DNA of 45,316 bases. Origin: Phycisphaerales bacterium (GTDB lineage Bacteria; Bacteroidota; Bacteroidia; Chitinophagales; Chitinophagaceae). The translations under genes and the position numbers were made by a program. A model generated the notes under the pieces. The model was not told the origin of the DNA and searched no databases. It saw only the letters and a list, made by a program, of their open reading frames with translations. Positions 23,293 to 45,217 of this stretch are shown here, piece by piece. Where the stretch lies: assembly GCA_030053995.1 (NCBI GenBank), contig JASGCP010000005.1, positions 1-45,316 of the forward strand. Direction: 5' to 3'. Position 1 is the stretch's first letter. Each line of letters begins with the position of its first letter.

Positions 23293-25095
23293 ATGCCAAT
23301 TTTTAAGAGAATATTAATAATGGACAAAGCGTACATAGTGGGCTTCCTTATCGTTCCACTACTAATCTCGTGTTTAATATTATTAGGAATCAATACGCAC
23401 AACAATAATATGATTGTAAAAGATTATAATCGCTTTATTATCAACGATGTGCGATCGATAGAGTATTGTGGTTCTATGAGTGAAGCCTTAAACACTTATT
23501 TATATTCAAACAAGGAAAAAGACGCAAATTTATTATTTAACGACTTTGAGATCAATTTATTAAGACAGAAGAAAAATGCAACACCAGGTCCTGAAAAAAA
23601 AATGACCGATAGTTTAGAAAAAGTATATCGAAGTTTTATTGAAAAAAATAGAATACCCGACACCATACAGTTTAAAAATTTTATTTTAAAAAACATCAAT
23701 CAACTAAAAGATATACTTACTACTATATCCTTGTATAATAGTCATAGCATGTGGATACAAGAAAAGCAAGATCAACAAAAATTCCGCACCTACACAAAAT
23801 ACATCAATATATTTTTAACCACAACGATCATTTTACTATCCCTATTAGGAATCTTATTGTTTCGATCAATTAAACAATATATTGCCAGCCTGTTATTATT
23901 ACGCAGAAATAATAAAAAAACTATTGAATCAATCAACACAGCAAGTAAAATTGAAATAACACTTGCCGATTTTGATGAAATAAAAAGTATTGCAAAAAAT
24001 ATTAATTTAAAATTAAACGAATTTGAAAAGAAACAAATTGTATTAGTACTCGTAAAAGAACAAATGCAAAGTATTTTTCTAGAGAAAATAAACGACCCCT
24101 TAATCGCCATTTTAGATACAAACACGATTTTCTTTATTAATGAAAGTGGATTGAAAATCTTTAACATGAATAAAGAAGATATGGTCAACAAAAATATCAA
24201 TACTTTTATTGACAATGATTTAATGAAATACATCTTAGACCCGATAGAAACAATCGACACCATGAATATTTTCTTTGATGATCAAGAAAGTTTTTTTCAA
24301 AAAGAAATTATACCCATTAGTATTCATGATAAATTTATGGGGCGATATATTATTTTGAAAAATGTTACTAAACTTTATCAAAAAGATATGAAGCGTAATT
24401 CATTTATTGCTAATATTTCTAATGATATTAAAGAATCTCATAACATCATTTTTAAGGGCATGCGTATTCTTAAAGGTACCATAACAAAAGAATCAAGAGA
24501 CATTTCTAAAGAATCTATAAACTTAATTGATAATTTAGCGGAACAAATTCGGCATATTGTTGATACGACCGAGAATTTATTAGATTTAGCACAAACAGAA
24601 ACTGGTAAAATTCAACTGCAGTTAGAACTTGTTGATCCTGTAGAAATTATGGACTATGCCTATGCTGTATTATTCAATGAAATAAATCAAAAAGAGATAC
24701 ACATCATAAAACAATTCAAAAAAGTATCCAAAATATTTTGCAATACTATTAAAACTAAATGGGTTGTTGTTAATATCCTTATTTCTGCAATTCAGCGTAG
24801 TAACAATAATTCTGAAATTACTCTTGGCATATATGAAGAGAAAAATCAGATTATTTTATATGTACGGGATTATGGTTTAGGATTCAACGAAGACGAGCAA
24901 AAACGCCTATTTACCAATCAATATAAGCAACCATTAAAAGAGGATAAAAAAGCAACAGAATTTGTGATAAATTTTGGATTTATTAAGGATTATATTGATG
25001 CCCAAAAAGGTGAAATTAGTTGTAGTTCAGAGCCCCATGTTCAGACAACTTTTTATATTAAATTTCATAAGGCTACAAATGAAGTAATCGTATAA
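23293..25095 (+). CDS. Degenerate sensor histidine kinase (pseudokinase)
   Basis: A 600-residue membrane protein with sensor-kinase layout: TM1 (about 14-31), an extracytoplasmic helical domain, TM2 (about 165-190), a HAMP-like linker, a PAS-like domain (about 250-360), then HisKA and HATPase regions. The key residues are changed. The H-box reads FIANISNDIKES, with Asn377 where the phospho-accepting His should be. The N-box reads NILISAIQRS, with Ser498 in place of the Mg-binding Asn. The G1 box DYGLG (526-530) remains, but the GTGLGL G2 box is replaced around 554-566 (ATEFVINFGFIKDY). The frame is intact over 600 codons, so it is probably still used, perhaps as a sensor or scaffold without kinase activity. 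Confidence 0.82.
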   Translation: MPIFKRILIMDKAYIVGFLIVPLLISCLILLGINTHNNNMIVKDYNRFIINDVRSIEYCGSMSEALNTYLYSNKEKDANLLFNDFEINLLRQKKNATPGPEKKMTDSLEKVYRSFIEKNRIPDTIQFKNFILKNINQLKDILTTISLYNSHSMWIQEKQDQQKFRTYTKYINIFLTTTIILLSLLGILLFRSIKQYIASLLLLRRNNKKTIESINTASKIEITLADFDEIKSIAKNINLKLNEFEKKQIVLVLVKEQMQSIFLEKINDPLIAILDTNTIFFINESGLKIFNMNKEDMVNKNINTFIDNDLMKYILDPIETIDTMNIFFDDQESFFQKEIIPISIHDKFMGRYIILKNVTKLYQKDMKRNSFIANISNDIKESHNIIFKGMRILKGTITKESRDISKESINLIDNLAEQIRHIVDTTENLLDLAQTETGKIQLQLELVDPVEIMDYAYAVLFNEINQKEIHIIKQFKKVSKIFCNTIKTKWVVVNILISAIQRSNNNSEITLGIYEEKNQIILYVRDYGLGFNEDEQKRLFTNQYKQPLKEDKKATEFVINFGFIKDYIDAQKGEISCSSEPHVQTTFYIKFHKATNEVIV

Positions 25096-29360: not shown

Positions 29361-30074
29361 TTAATTTTGAGCATTAGTGATTAATCTAAAGCCACTCCCA
29401 TGTACATTAACAATTTCAAGTTTAGAGTCATCCTTTAGATATTTCCTCAGTTTAACAATATACACATCCATACTGCGCCCATTAAAATAGGTATCACTTC
29501 CCCATATTTTCCTAAGTGCAAATTCACGCGATACTAAATTTCCTTGTGCTTCGATCAAGAGTTCCATTAACCTAGACTCTTTTGGAGACAAAACAATTGT
29601 TTTGTCATTACTAGTTAATTCCCTTGTGTTCGTATTAAATGCATATTGACCAATGTTATAAACTGTTGAGCTATTAGAAAGTTTGTTGTTATCATCTTCA
29701 TGCCTTTTAATGATAGCCCGTATTTTATGAAGAAGTACATCAACATCAAATGGTTTAGAGATATAATCATCGGCCCCTAATTTATAACCTTTTATAATAT
29801 CCTCTTTTAAATTTTTAGCACTTATGAAAAATAACGGGACTTCGGGGTTATCCTTACGAATTTCCTCAGCCAAGGTAAAGCCGTCAACATGGGGCATCAT
29901 CACATCTAAAAGGCATATATCGTAGGTATGCTTATGAAATCCGCTCAAAGCTGCACGTCCATCTCTTTCTAAAATCACCTCAAAATCATTTAATTCAAGA
30001 TGTTTTTTTAACAGATTACCCAAATTAGTATCGTCTTCACAGAGAAATACTTTATACTTATTGCTGTTTGTCAT
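29361..30074 (-). CDS. OmpR-family response regulator (RprY-like)
   Basis: A 237-residue two-component regulator. The receiver (1-120) has the acidic pair D14-D15, the phospho-acceptor Asp57 (CLLDVMMPHVDGF) and the conserved Lys in DYISKPFD. The C-terminal winged helix (about 140-235) ends with YIVKLRKYLKDDSKLEIVNVHGSGFRL. All key residues are intact. No functional histidine kinase gene is adjacent; the only kinase-like gene in the window (23293) lacks its acceptor His. It resembles RprY of Bacteroides. Confidence 0.92.
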   Translation of the reverse strand: MTNSNKYKVFLCEDDTNLGNLLKKHLELNDFEVILERDGRAALSGFHKHTYDICLLDVMMPHVDGFTLAEEIRKDNPEVPLFFISAKNLKEDIIKGYKLGADDYISKPFDVDVLLHKIRAIIKRHEDDNNKLSNSSTVYNIGQYAFNTNTRELTSNDKTIVLSPKESRLMELLIEAQGNLVSREFALRKIWGSDTYFNGRSMDVYIVKLRKYLKDDSKLEIVNVHGSGFRLITNAQN

Positions 30075-31773: not shown

Positions 31774-33417
31774 TTACGCCTGTTGCTGTACGATTGTTTT
31801 TTTTCGATATCCGTAATAATAATAAAAAATTAAACCGATGAGTATCCAGCTAAGAAATAATAACCAATTCCGTAACTCCATACCCGTTAACAAATATAAC
31901 GATGTAATAATGCCCAATAAGGGGATGAGTGATTGATTAGTAATTGTTCCCACCAACACTGTGACTACAAAAATAATCCAAAAGATCAGGGTTGTTATTT
32001 TATTAGTTACACTATGGAATAAAATATCCGATTGGTGTCCGGGTACATTATTGTCAAGATATAATAACTCCTTAAAATAAAGTGGATTAGCATATTGAAT
32101 ACAAATTACGATCGCCAAGAAAAGCGGGATCATCCATTTACCGTGAATATGAGGTATAGTAAAAGTATTAGCTTGTTTGGGTAACATTTTTTTATGATCC
32201 ATAATTAAAACACCCAAACAAATAATAATAAAAACAACAATCGTACCAAGGCTTGTAAAGTCGAGCATTAATTGTTTACCGGTACAAATAATAAAAATAG
32301 ATATTAATACAAAAGTAATCCAAGTAGCAAAAGATGGGGTTTGATAGCGTGGGTGTATGGTTGCAAACTTATCCGGCAATAAGCCGTCGCGTCCCATACT
32401 GAACCATACACGCGGTTGACTAATTTGGAAAGCCAAAAGTGCACTGGTCATGGCGATTAGTGCTGTAATGCCTATCAACACAATAAAAAATGTAAATCCT
32501 TGGGGAATAAATACAAAGGTTAGGGGGTCAGCGACATCTAATTGGCGATAGCCGACTATACCGATTAACACCATTGCGACAATTATATAAATTGCCGTGG
32601 ATATAACAAGCGACCAAATCATTGAACGAGGGACATCCCGTTTTGGATTTTTAGCATCTTCCGCCAGTGTGGAAATAGCATCAAAGCCTATATAAGTAAA
32701 GAAAACAGCCGACACGCTACCCATAATTCCAGAAAAACCGTTCGGCAACCAAGTAAATAAATTCTTAGCTTTAACTAAAGTAACGCCAACAACAACAACT
32801 AAAAACAGAATAAATAATTTGATCAATACCATTCCATTATTAATTCTTTTGGATGTATAGATACCAATATAGGCCATACAACTCACTAATATATTGATAA
32901 AAATTGCGGGCAGATCAACGAGTAATTTAAAATGCCATACATGGGGGGCTACCAGCCATGCTCGATAATCTTCCGTGGTTACATTATTATTAACAAAAGC
33001 ATCATAACCGTCCCAATACGAAGTAGATAAATATAAGGGTATATGAATACCAATAGTATGTAAACTAGTTGTTAGATAATCACTCCAAGCAAAAGTTACA
33101 TACACATTAGCAAGGGAATACTCTAATATTAACAACCAGCCGACGATCCAGCCCATCGTTTTGCCCATAGATGCGTAGGCATAGGTATAAGCACTACCAC
33201 TAACAGGATAACGTGCTGCAAAAGTTGCATAACATAAAGCGGATAAAATAGAGGCGACCGCACAAAATAAAAACAAAAAAACAACACCCAACCCACCTTG
33301 ATAACAAGCGACACCTATTGAGCTAAAACTACCTGCACCGACTATGGCAGCTATACCAAAAAAAATAAGATCTCCTTGAGATAATACACGCTTTAGCCCA
33401 ACTTTGTTTTGACTCAT
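31774..33417 (-). CDS. APC-family amino acid permease
   Basis: An integral membrane transporter of the amino acid-polyamine-organocation superfamily with at least 12 hydrophobic segments over about 547 residues. The first helix has the family signature GDLIFFGIAAIVGAGSFSSIG, where small residues line the substrate site; FFTYIGFDAISTLAEDAKNPKRDVP is the helix-6 region typical of cationic amino acid transporters. The frame opens at a TTG (33426), but the ATG at 33417 (MSQNKVGLKR) is the better start. The substrate is not predictable. A promoter-like TAACTTTTGC lies on the minus strand at 33452-33461. Confidence 0.88.
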   Translation of the reverse strand: MSQNKVGLKRVLSQGDLIFFGIAAIVGAGSFSSIGVACYQGGLGVVFLFLFCAVASILSALCYATFAARYPVSGSAYTYAYASMGKTMGWIVGWLLILEYSLANVYVTFAWSDYLTTSLHTIGIHIPLYLSTSYWDGYDAFVNNNVTTEDYRAWLVAPHVWHFKLLVDLPAIFINILVSCMAYIGIYTSKRINNGMVLIKLFILFLVVVVGVTLVKAKNLFTWLPNGFSGIMGSVSAVFFTYIGFDAISTLAEDAKNPKRDVPRSMIWSLVISTAIYIIVAMVLIGIVGYRQLDVADPLTFVFIPQGFTFFIVLIGITALIAMTSALLAFQISQPRVWFSMGRDGLLPDKFATIHPRYQTPSFATWITFVLISIFIICTGKQLMLDFTSLGTIVVFIIICLGVLIMDHKKMLPKQANTFTIPHIHGKWMIPLFLAIVICIQYANPLYFKELLYLDNNVPGHQSDILFHSVTNKITTLIFWIIFVVTVLVGTITNQSLIPLLGIITSLYLLTGMELRNWLLFLSWILIGLIFYYYYGYRKKTIVQQQA

Positions 33418-33642
33418 ATAATTCAAAAAAGAATCTTACTTTATAAAATATGCAAAAGTTACATCATCTTTTCTTACCTTATACAATATTGTACAAAAAA
33501 CAATCGCATTCTTTACTGCTCGTTCTATTAACACATAAAAAAAGAATACCCCACTGCCCCCGACACAAAAATGCGCTTTATATTTTTTAGGAATAGCTGA
33601 ACAGAATTAGAAAGTATTAGTAAAAAGACAACTTAAAAAGTA

Positions 33643-38796: not shown

Positions 38797-39906
38797 CTAA
38801 TATGGGGAATAAACATTTGGAAAGGCGATATCTCTTACGCGAATATTTCCACTGATTATAGATAATGGAGACGACCATGTATTAATATTACTATTCGTAA
38901 TAACTAATCGACCGTCCTTACCCACCGCTACCCCATAGGTATTTGTAGAAAAGGATACGCTAGCAATTGTATCATTGGTAAAATTAGGAAAATATTGAAC
39001 ATTACTCCATAATCTTCCGCTATCTGAAGTATAAGCATATACAGGCATTGTATTACTACTTCCAGCAATCAATCCATTCGCCGCATTAGTAAATACAACT
39101 TTATTAACCGTAGCATTTATAAATTGCGGAATTGCAACAGGTGGAGTCCAAGTATTTCCGGTGTCCTCCGTAAATGAATACAGAGCCTGATTTGTAGCAT
39201 CTATTCCTACAATCACTCCGGTTGACCGGGTTGAAAAAGCAACGCCGGTAATTTTGGCAAATCCTGAAAACGGAACTGCAGATGACCAAGTAGCACCGCC
39301 GTCTCTTGTCCGCGTATAATATTGGGCACCAACGGCAAGTCCAATATTATTTGTAGCAAAATCAACGGCTACAAGTGGGGAAGTAGAACCAGTAATGTTG
39401 GCAATCGTTGTAAAATGTTGACCGAAATGTGGCGAGAAGGCATAGGCACCTTCACCGGCAACCGTACTACTAGCACCTACTGCTACGATCGTATCGGGGG
39501 TATTTGATACGGTAATAATATCACGAATAGTAGCCATGCCTTCGATATTCATGGGTGTTCCCCATGTTTCACCACCATCGTTACTCATCACTACAACGGC
39601 TTGATTTTGCCCGTCGATGGTTGTATCACCGGCTACAAATGCAATTGTCAAAGATGAGAAATTAATAGAATTGGGGGTATCAATACCAGGTAAATTCATT
39701 ACGGGCGACCAAGTAACACCACCATCATAAGTATAAGCATAAACACCTTGTGCATTATATGTTCCCACAATAGCGCCAAAATAAGGGTCTGTATTAATAG
39801 GTATATCAGAATTGCCTGATAATTGCGAGGCTTTTTTACAGGATGATAGTACAAATAGTGCAATAAACAACACAAAAAAAATGCAACGAAAAAAGCGAGA
39901 CATCAT
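38797..39906 (-). CDS. YCF48-like beta-propeller lipoprotein
   Basis: A 369-residue surface lipoprotein. The signal peptide ends VLSSC at a lipobox. It is followed by about seven repeats of roughly 45 residues, each ending near a (Y/F)-x-x-x-DGG-x-TW motif (for example VYAYTYDGGVTWSP, YYTRTRDGGATWSS, LYSFTEDTGNTWTP). This suits a seven-bladed YCF48/BNR-type propeller. Several repeats have lost the DGG. The ligand is unknown; YCF48 proteins elsewhere act in assembly, but surface BNR repeats often bind glycans. It resembles the protein at 44150-45217 and has its own promoter. Confidence 0.78.
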   Translation of the reverse strand: MMSRFFRCIFFVLFIALFVLSSCKKASQLSGNSDIPINTDPYFGAIVGTYNAQGVYAYTYDGGVTWSPVMNLPGIDTPNSINFSSLTIAFVAGDTTIDGQNQAVVVMSNDGGETWGTPMNIEGMATIRDIITVSNTPDTIVAVGASSTVAGEGAYAFSPHFGQHFTTIANITGSTSPLVAVDFATNNIGLAVGAQYYTRTRDGGATWSSAVPFSGFAKITGVAFSTRSTGVIVGIDATNQALYSFTEDTGNTWTPPVAIPQFINATVNKVVFTNAANGLIAGSSNTMPVYAYTSDSGRLWSNVQYFPNFTNDTIASVSFSTNTYGVAVGKDGRLVITNSNINTWSSPLSIISGNIRVRDIAFPNVYSPY

Positions 39907-44112: not shown

Positions 44113-44154
44113 TAATCCTGCGTCATATTGATTTTTTTTATATGCTACATTAAA
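44113..44154 (+). repeat. 42 bp direct repeat, right copy (pepT start remnant)
   Basis: On the minus strand it reads the end of the YCF48-like gene 2 stop codon, then the pepT leader and an ATG followed by three pepT-like codons and a stop (ATGACGCAGGATTAG). It is therefore a dead copy of the pepT start, left upstream of the Kelch gene. Confidence 0.85.
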
Positions 44155-45217
44155 ACAACCTGTAAGAATAGGGGAATGCAACTGATTGAAAAGCACCGGC
44201 ACCATCCCACCCGCTGATTGTTTGAGGGGAAGACCATGTTTTTCCACCATCAGTTGTCCGGATATATATACCCGCATAATTCGGATCATAACCAACAGCA
44301 ATACCATTCGATGAATTTGCAAAGCTAACGGCCGTGATATTAGCAGAACCAGTAATAGTTACTGCATCAGACCATGTTTTTCCACCGTCAAGGGTATATG
44401 AATAGGCACCTACATTATTGGTAGTGGTTCCTACTGCGACTCCGGTTAGTGATGTTGAAAATGCCACATCTTTAATATTCCTAAACCCAGTTATAATGGT
44501 TCCATCAGACCAGTTTTGTCCACCGTCGCTTGTATATGAATAAACACCATAGAAAGGCGAACTCGTATCATTACCTACTGCTACCCCGTTCAATTGAGTA
44601 GAAAATGCCACCGATCGAATATCCGCAAATTTTGCGATACCTAATGCATTAGACCATGTATTTCCGCCATCACTCGTGTTTGCGTATTGTCCGTTCCCGC
44701 CTACTAATATTCCATTTGAAGCCGATGTAAATACAACTTTATTAACATCTACATAAAGACCTATGTCAGGCGAATTCCAATTTACAATATCCCTCTTTGC
44801 AGATGACCATGTATTTCCACCGTCGTTGGTAGTAGCATATTGTCCGCCATACCCTACGGCAACACCGTTTGAATATGTTGAAAAACCAACCGCATAAATA
44901 CCATATATCCATCCTTGAATTGATCGAACAGACGACCAAGTCAGTCCTCCGTCATTCGTAGTAGAATAAACACCGGCAGAATTGGTGTTATTTTTAAATT
45001 CGCCTACAGCTACACCAGTTTTTTGTGATGGGAAAGAAACTGAAAAAATGAAGCCTGTAAACCCACTAATTTGTTGAGCAGATGTCCAATTTGTCCCACC
45101 GTCATTCGTATAAGAAAATAAACCCTTTTGCACATTCCAACCGCCCACTATTACAGCTAAGTTTGCATTATTATTTGGCACCGGATTACTTATATCTTTT
45201 TTACAAGAAAAAAACAT
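44150..45217 (-). CDS. YCF48-like beta-propeller lipoprotein, start out of frame
   Basis: As written, a 355-residue protein starting MFFSCKKD. It has seven clear repeats with motifs such as FSYTNDGGTNWTS, YATTNDGGNTWSS and YSYTLDGGKTWSD, each preceded by an FST-x(3)-GVAVG-type strand: a seven-bladed YCF48/BNR propeller. A lipobox (FFSC) is present, but only three residues precede it, too few for a signal peptide. An upstream ATG at 45266 would supply a full hydrophobic signal, but two A tracts and a 22-base duplication between it and the lipobox leave it one base out of frame. The gene is either phase-variable and currently off, or the homopolymers are miscounted at the sequence end. Confidence 0.75.
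   Translation of the reverse strand: MFFSCKKDISNPVPNNNANLAVIVGGWNVQKGLFSYTNDGGTNWTSAQQISGFTGFIFSVSFPSQKTGVAVGEFKNNTNSAGVYSTTNDGGLTWSSVRSIQGWIYGIYAVGFSTYSNGVAVGYGGQYATTNDGGNTWSSAKRDIVNWNSPDIGLYVDVNKVVFTSASNGILVGGNGQYANTSDGGNTWSNALGIAKFADIRSVAFSTQLNGVAVGNDTSSPFYGVYSYTSDGGQNWSDGTIITGFRNIKDVAFSTSLTGVAVGTTTNNVGAYSYTLDGGKTWSDAVTITGSANITAVSFANSSNGIAVGYDPNYAGIYIRTTDGGKTWSSPQTISGWDGAGAFQSVAFPYSYRLF

What the first reader, a model, noticed from the sequence alone, without database searches (positions are those of the whole stretch)
23293..25095. Sensor histidine kinase that has lost its acceptor His, N-box Asn and G2 box
The protein keeps sensor, HAMP-like, PAS, HisKA and HATPase layout and the G1 DYGLG, but Asn377 replaces the phosphorylated His, Ser498 replaces the N-box Asn and the GTGLGL lid motif is gone. 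Loss of three separate functional sites in a 600-codon open frame suggests selection for a non-catalytic role, for example sensing with another kinase or titrating a regulator.
Basis: partly seen in the sequence, partly recalled or inferred. Interest (0 to 1): 0.7.

Follow-up and report, generated by a model that had tools for sequence, protein, structure and literature searches.

The report
Dead kinase half of potassium sensor
This bacterium keeps its high-affinity potassium pump and the serine kinase predicted to switch that pump off, but the pump's partner sensor kinase has lost the residues needed to pass on phosphate while still being encoded as a full-length protein, so nature has separated two jobs normally done together.

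Summary
The 600-codon frame is intact and has Asn377 for the phospho-accepting His, Ser498 for the N-box Asn and no G2 box; the HisKA phosphatase Thr (now Glu381) is lost too. All 49 orthologues from an unbiased search, and 80 of 80 from a second, pattern-based search, are canonical at His377 and Asn498. The gene is not a generic sensor kinase. It descends from the histidine-kinase half of the split KdpD of Bacteroidota kdp (K+ pump) operons: 47 of 49 orthologues lie directly downstream of KdpD-N. This genome keeps kdpABC and a well-conserved KdpD-N, whose E. coli counterpart is a serine kinase that inhibits the pump. The operon is broken up, and no NtrC-type response regulator carrying a receiver was found. 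The kinase half has diverged far beyond expectation (25% identity, where relatives of equal KdpD-N distance keep 45%). The transcriptional arm of Kdp control is therefore probably dead and the post-translational arm retained. Whether the pseudokinase still works, as membrane sensor or anchor for KdpD-N, or is decaying is unresolved: no relative is close enough for dN/dS. An intact frame despite about 114 excess changes argues against free decay throughout. New variant of a known kind.

The parts
23293..25095 (+). pseudo-histidine kinase gene, 600 codons, derived from the histidine-kinase half of split KdpD
   Evidence: ORF; full-length homology to kdp-operon kinases
23329..23394 (+). first transmembrane helix, about residues 13-34
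   Evidence: hydrophobic stretch in the translation, helix in AF2 model
23395..23805 (+). periplasmic helical (MCP-like four-helix) sensor, residues 35-171; 5 of 11 near-invariant sensor/TM residues kept
23806..23865 (+). second transmembrane helix, about residues 172-191
   Evidence: hydrophobic stretch, helix in model
23866..24027 (+). degenerate HAMP, residues 192-245; in the HAMP/linker 1 of 10 near-invariant residues kept; no Pfam hit
24079..24366 (+). PAS domain, residues 263-358; 7 of 9 near-invariant residues kept
   Evidence: PAS_9 E=1.6e-4; model pLDDT mostly 81-94
24367..24603 (+). degenerate DHp (HisKA) domain, residues 359-437; 5 of 17 near-invariant residues kept
24421..24423 (+). 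Asn377 in place of the phospho-accepting His
   Evidence: 49/49 and 80/80 orthologues have His
24433..24438 (+). Glu381-Ser382 in place of Thr-Pro (phosphatase Thr lost)
   Evidence: 49/49 orthologues have TP
24604..25080 (+). CA (HATPase_c) domain, residues 438-596; 13 of 23 near-invariant residues kept, fold core modelled at pLDDT 93-97
   Evidence: HATPase_c E=3.5e-8
24784..24786 (+). Ser498 in place of the second (Mg-binding) N-box Asn
   Evidence: 49/49 and 80/80 orthologues have Asn
24868..24882 (+). intact G1 box DYGLG, residues 526-530
   Evidence: invariant columns kept
24952..24978 (+). destroyed G2 box / ATP lid (A-T-E-F-V-I-N-F-G where orthologues have GTG--LGLA), with a two-residue insertion
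   Evidence: lid region low confidence in model

Best explanation
The gene is the histidine-kinase half of the split KdpD system of Bacteroidota, now a pseudokinase. In relatives the operon is kdpABC, (porin), KdpD-N, histidine kinase, often with an NtrC-type response regulator. In this reduced genome the operon has been broken up and the response regulator is gone or at least not found. The kinase can neither autophosphorylate (no His, no N-box Asn, no G2 lid) nor act as a HisKA phosphatase (no Thr). The pump and KdpD-N are kept with all motifs needed for the serine-kinase reaction (Walker A, Walker B, KdpB TGES serine), so Kdp control is inferred to be post-translational only. Because the pseudokinase still encodes two TM helices, the sensor, PAS and a CA fold, my best guess is that it persists as a membrane sensor or docking subunit that adjusts KdpD-N. 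Shown: descent, loss of sites, retention of partner and pump. Inferred: biochemical death, serine-kinase activity of KdpD-N here, and the sensor/anchor role.
For: Full-length orthologues only among kdp-linked kinases: 47/49 have KdpD-N directly upstream, 74/80 have it in a second set, 57/60 long loci carry kdpABC and 36/60 an NtrC-type regulator; second copies are also kdp-linked. This genome has kdpABC and KdpD-N, with mnmE now where the kinase gene would sit. KdpD-N keeps 122/136 near-invariant residues against 45/94 for the kinase; KdpB keeps TGES. For relatives with KdpD-N identity 0.52-0.60 the kinases are 0.447 +/- 0.034 identical (n=173, min 0.358); here 0.247 (max 0.277). No receiver-bearing sigma-54 regulator. 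E. coli KdpD-N is a serine kinase on KdpB S162, also controlled by the K+-sensing part of KdpD, and species lacking the Kdp response regulator usually lack kinase-competent KdpD (PMC11018627). No c-di-AMP synthase here, and only in 2 of 24 relatives of the same family, so the alternative input known for short KdpD is unavailable. Frame intact: P(no stop) about 3e-4 for 114 unconstrained substitutions; hydrophobic positions kept beyond all 300 neutral simulations.
Against: No direct evidence that the pseudokinase contacts KdpD-N, here or in relatives; short KdpD can work without any kinase partner (PMC11018627). HAMP and DHp, which would carry a signal, are the most degraded parts (1/10 and 5/17 residues kept). 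The constraint signal is weak per domain and could be inherited from a long constrained past followed by recent relaxation. The genome is about 90% complete in 203 contigs, so a missing regulator or cyclase could be an assembly gap.
Confidence: 0.45

Rival explanations
1. Decaying relic: once the response regulator was lost and the operon broken up, the kinase half became useless; it is drifting and has simply not yet met a stop codon, while KdpD-N alone controls the pump.
For: Catalytic, HAMP and DHp residues all degrade; G+C 0.28, the lowest of the 34 window genes examined and equal to intergenic DNA; response regulator not found; branch of 3.32 changes per site against a mean of 0.35 in relatives; KdpD-only species exist (PMC11018627).
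Against: No stop or frameshift in 600 codons although about 114 excess amino-acid changes separate it from expectation; TM helices, PAS and the CA core remain recognisable; hydrophobic columns kept above the neutral null overall; codon-position composition still uneven (0.34/0.23/0.26).
Confidence: 0.38
2. Pseudokinase re-used in another circuit: it pairs with one of the three remaining histidine kinases, or titrates a response regulator such as the RprY-like protein encoded 4 kb away (29361-30074), in the manner of DivL or RocA.
For: Three catalytically complete kinases and two OmpR-type regulators remain in the genome; DivL and RocA show pseudo-histidine kinases acting on other two-component systems (PMC4211667, PMC7028121).
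Against: DHp, the dimerisation and regulator-docking domain, is with HAMP the least conserved part and its hydrophobic positions match the neutral null (0.64 against 0.64); no OmpR-type regulator is linked to any of the 60 long kdp loci.
Confidence: 0.1
3. Not a kdp kinase descendant but a fast-evolving paralogue of another 4-helix/HAMP/PAS kinase family; the resemblance to kdp kinases is general.
For: With an outgroup the tree puts it outside the kdp kinases, and identity is only 22-31%.
Against: That placement is flagged as long branches meeting. Hits over the full length including the sensor are kdp-linked almost without exception, the next hits cover only DHp-CA with far weaker E-values, and a non-kdp kinase of the same layout (L030) is only 19% identical.
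Confidence: 0.07

Closest known systems
KdpD, tandem serine/histidine kinase (E. coli) and short KdpD-Usp of Deinococcus geothermalis (PMC11018627)
   Same: KdpD-N with Walker A/B and KdpB TGES serine are kept here; loss of histidine-kinase output together with loss of the response regulator matches the pattern reported there.
   Different: There the kinase domains are absent or truncated; here they persist as a full-length separate pseudokinase, and no c-di-AMP synthase was found to supply the alternative input.
Canonical split-KdpD histidine kinases of Bacteroidota kdp operons (e.g. Taibaiella, Mucilaginibacter, Flavobacterium, Bacteroides luti loci)
   Same: Same length, sensor-TM-HAMP-PAS-DHp-CA order, alignable end to end.
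   Different: They keep every catalytic motif and the operon linkage; this one keeps neither.
DivL (Caulobacter), Tyr in place of His (PMC4211667)
   Same: Pseudo-histidine kinase lacking the phospho-acceptor.
   Different: DivL keeps the N, G1, F and G2 boxes and is conserved across alphaproteobacteria; here N-box, G2 box and phosphatase residue are gone too and one genome is known.
RocA (group A Streptococcus) (PMC7028121)
   Same: Membrane pseudo-histidine kinase with a degenerate CA domain.
   Different: RocA acts on a second, active kinase (CovS); no such partner is indicated here.

Membership tests
HisKA-type sensor histidine kinase (active) | phospho-accepting His in the H box | tested here: not met
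   Asn377; 49/49 orthologues His
HisKA-type sensor histidine kinase (active) | N-box Asn for Mg-ATP | tested here: not met
   Ser498; first Asn494 kept
HisKA-type sensor histidine kinase (active) | G1 box DxGxG | tested here: met
   DYGLG 526-530
HisKA-type sensor histidine kinase (active) | G2 box GTGLGL in ATP lid | tested here: not met
   columns read A-T-E-I-N-F
HisKA-type sensor histidine kinase (active) | ATP binding and autophosphorylation | not testable with these tools
   needs purified protein
histidine kinase half of split KdpD | full-length homology including the sensor | tested here: met
   22-31% identity over about 570 aa to kdp-linked kinases
histidine kinase half of split KdpD | gene directly downstream of KdpD-N in a kdp operon | tested here: not met
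   kdpABC, KdpD-N and this gene lie on three contigs with other neighbours; so it is called a descendant, not a member
histidine kinase half of split KdpD | NtrC-type (sigma-54) response regulator available | tested here: inconclusive
   none with a receiver found, but the assembly is about 90% complete
pseudo-histidine kinase with a selected function (DivL/RocA-like) | kinase fold retained without catalytic residues | tested here: met
   HATPase_c detected, CA core pLDDT 93-97 although the model leans on intact homologues
pseudo-histidine kinase with a selected function (DivL/RocA-like) | purifying selection on the pseudokinase | tested here: inconclusive
   overall above neutral null, per domain only CA; dN/dS impossible
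KdpD-N atypical serine kinase (partner gene, contig C77) | Walker A, Walker B and KdpB TGES serine | tested here: met
   APGVGKT and VIVDE in KdpD-N, TGES at KdpB 160-163, 122/136 near-invariant residues kept

The most novel reading that the evidence does not exclude
A catalytically dead histidine kinase serves as the membrane sensor subunit of a separate atypical serine kinase (KdpD-N), so that a two-component sensor has been converted into the input of a purely post-translational transporter brake; this would also explain how KdpD-N is controlled in a bacterial family that mostly lacks c-di-AMP synthase.
Probability: 0.27. Interest if true: 0.75.

Novelty: new variant of a known kind. Interest (0 to 1): 0.45.

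Why it matters
Well-characterised pseudo-histidine kinases are few. Here the ancestral pathway, the cognate serine kinase and its pump target are all identifiable, giving a natural separation of the two activities recently assigned to KdpD. It makes testable whether the sensor of a split KdpD controls the serine kinase independently of histidine phosphorylation, an open point in the 2024 KdpD work. It also shows that Bacteroidota kdp operons, listed there as having mainly the short KdpD, commonly carry a separate histidine kinase right behind it.

Tried and rejected
dN/dS: no congener; an exact-peptide scan of 84,980 species found none, and 396 same-family genomes gave at best 31% identity. 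Sigma-54 promoter upstream of kdpA: scattered weak sites in some relatives and none here, but most relatives lack a match too, so inconclusive. A degenerate receiver on the 439-aa sigma-54 regulator at C123 was considered as the lost partner; it is a receiver-less type, starting directly with the AAA domain, so rejected. Phylogenetic placement of the pseudokinase is not usable (long-branch warning). The structure model cannot prove the fold because it is guided by intact homologues. The idea of a paralogue was tested with second copies, which all proved kdp-linked. The 157-aa antisense ORF inside the gene was not pursued; an AT-rich frame gives such ORFs easily.

Full report
Observation. The ORF at 23293-25095 (+) is real and intact, 600 codons. 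Pfam recognises HATPase_c (E=3.5e-8) and, below its cut-off, PAS; HisKA and HAMP are no longer detected, although an orthologue scores 63 and 55 bits for them. Aligned to 49 full-length orthologues from whole genomes, the His, the N-box Asn, the Thr-Pro after the His and the Gly residues of the G2 box are invariant or nearly so in the orthologues and all changed here; the G1 box, Asn494, Lys487, Trp490 and Phe540 are kept. Eighty more orthologues have the His and the N-box Asn without exception, and the weakest hits in the family are canonical too wherever covered.

Identity. In relatives the gene lies directly behind KdpD-N (47 of 49; 74 of 80 in a second set), in operons with kdpA, kdpB and kdpC (57 of 60 long loci) and often an NtrC-type regulator (36 of 60). 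In some loci the regulator follows the kinase immediately (L212, L215). It is therefore the histidine-kinase half of a KdpD that is split into two genes across Bacteroidota.

State of the system in this genome. The window's genome (2.28 Mb, 203 contigs, about 90% complete) has kdpABC on contig C110, with radA next to kdpC where the porin, KdpD-N and kinase would be expected. KdpD-N is on C77, overlapping the start of mnmE. The kinase half is in the window between gltX and a DUF2147 gene. Of four receiver domains found, two are OmpR-type, one belongs to a PorX-like protein and one to an unrelated gene cluster; the identifiable sigma-54 regulator has no receiver. The cognate regulator thus appears lost, with the caveat of completeness.

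Rates. KdpD-N keeps 122 of 136 near-invariant residues, including Walker A and B, and KdpB keeps the TGES serine; the kinase half keeps 45 of 94. Relatives at the same KdpD-N distance have kinases 0.447 +/- 0.034 identical; here it is 0.247. The acceleration is specific to the kinase half. By domain, near-invariant residues kept are: sensor and TM 5/11, HAMP/linker 1/10, PAS 7/9, DHp 5/17, CA 13/23.

Function or decay. The difference of 0.20 in identity corresponds to roughly 114 excess amino-acid changes over about 570 aligned residues. With a 7% chance of a stop per random substitution, a stop-free frame after 114 unconstrained substitutions has a chance of about 3e-4. Changed hydrophobic positions stay hydrophobic in 80 of 98 cases, above all 300 neutral simulations (mean 0.63). 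Split by domain with the larger alignment the signal is significant only for CA (p=0.024) and absent in DHp and HAMP. These simulations start from living orthologues, so a gene constrained for long and released recently could look the same. The gene's G+C of 0.28 equals that of the intergenic DNA and is the lowest of the 34 window genes examined, but the codon positions still differ (0.34/0.23/0.26). I read this as relaxed but not free evolution. A full refutation of decay needs a congener, and none is available.

Mechanism. Silberberg et al. 2024 (PMC11018627) showed that KdpD-N of E. coli is an atypical serine kinase that phosphorylates KdpB Ser162 and shuts the pump at high K+, that this activity is also under the K+-sensing part of KdpD, that the short KdpD of Deinococcus is instead controlled by c-di-AMP, and that species without the response regulator mostly have no kinase-competent KdpD. 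This genome fits that pattern (serine-kinase arm kept, histidine-kinase arm dead, regulator absent) with one difference: the dead kinase persists. No diadenylate cyclase is found here, and only 2 of 24 sampled relatives of the same family have one, against 13 of 16 in other families of the order. KdpD-N of this family therefore probably receives its signal by another route, and the neighbouring sensor protein is the obvious candidate. That is the basis for proposing a sensor/anchor role for the pseudokinase. It is an inference; the degraded HAMP and DHp count against simple signal relay.

Comparison. As a pseudo-histidine kinase it resembles DivL and RocA in principle but is more degenerate than DivL, and its ancestral pathway is different. 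As a Kdp regulator it is a descendant, not a member, of the split-KdpD kinases: catalytic and operon criteria are not met. The AF2 model gives a CA core at pLDDT 93-97 with an uncertain lid and matches histidine-kinase structures, but intact homologues guide the model.

Verdict. Observation confirmed; interpretation partly supported; new variant of a known kind.

Noticed in passing
L045, L047, L050, L106-L185 (kdp loci): Bacteroidota kdp operons usually carry a separate histidine kinase directly behind KdpD-N, often with an NtrC-type regulator; the 2024 survey (PMC11018627) lists Bacteroidota as having mainly short KdpD, probably because this kinase has no KdpD-type GAF sensor.
   Followed up: partly
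whole genomes G001-G052: Diadenylate cyclase is missing from 22 of 24 sampled genomes of the window's family but present in 13 of 16 genomes of other families in the order, although KdpD-N (a c-di-AMP target elsewhere) is widespread in the family.
   Followed up: partly
29361-30074 (-): RprY-like OmpR-type response regulator with no kinase gene beside it.
   Followed up: no
38797-39906 (-) and 44150-45217 (-): Two Ycf48-like (PSII_BNR) beta-propeller proteins close together, with higher second-position G+C than the other genes.
   Followed up: no
L096:10069-14831 (contig C56): Cluster of a reverse-transcriptase-like protein (780 aa), a 216-aa protein and a 589-aa protein with an embedded receiver-like domain; might be a defence or mobile cassette.
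   Followed up: no
31774-33426 (-); L061:17411-18967; L062:7111-8649: Several amino-acid-permease-like transporters in a reduced AT-rich genome, which may indicate a host-dependent lifestyle.
   Followed up: no
23790-24263 (-): A 157-aa antisense ORF inside the pseudokinase gene; probably chance in AT-rich DNA.
   Followed up: no
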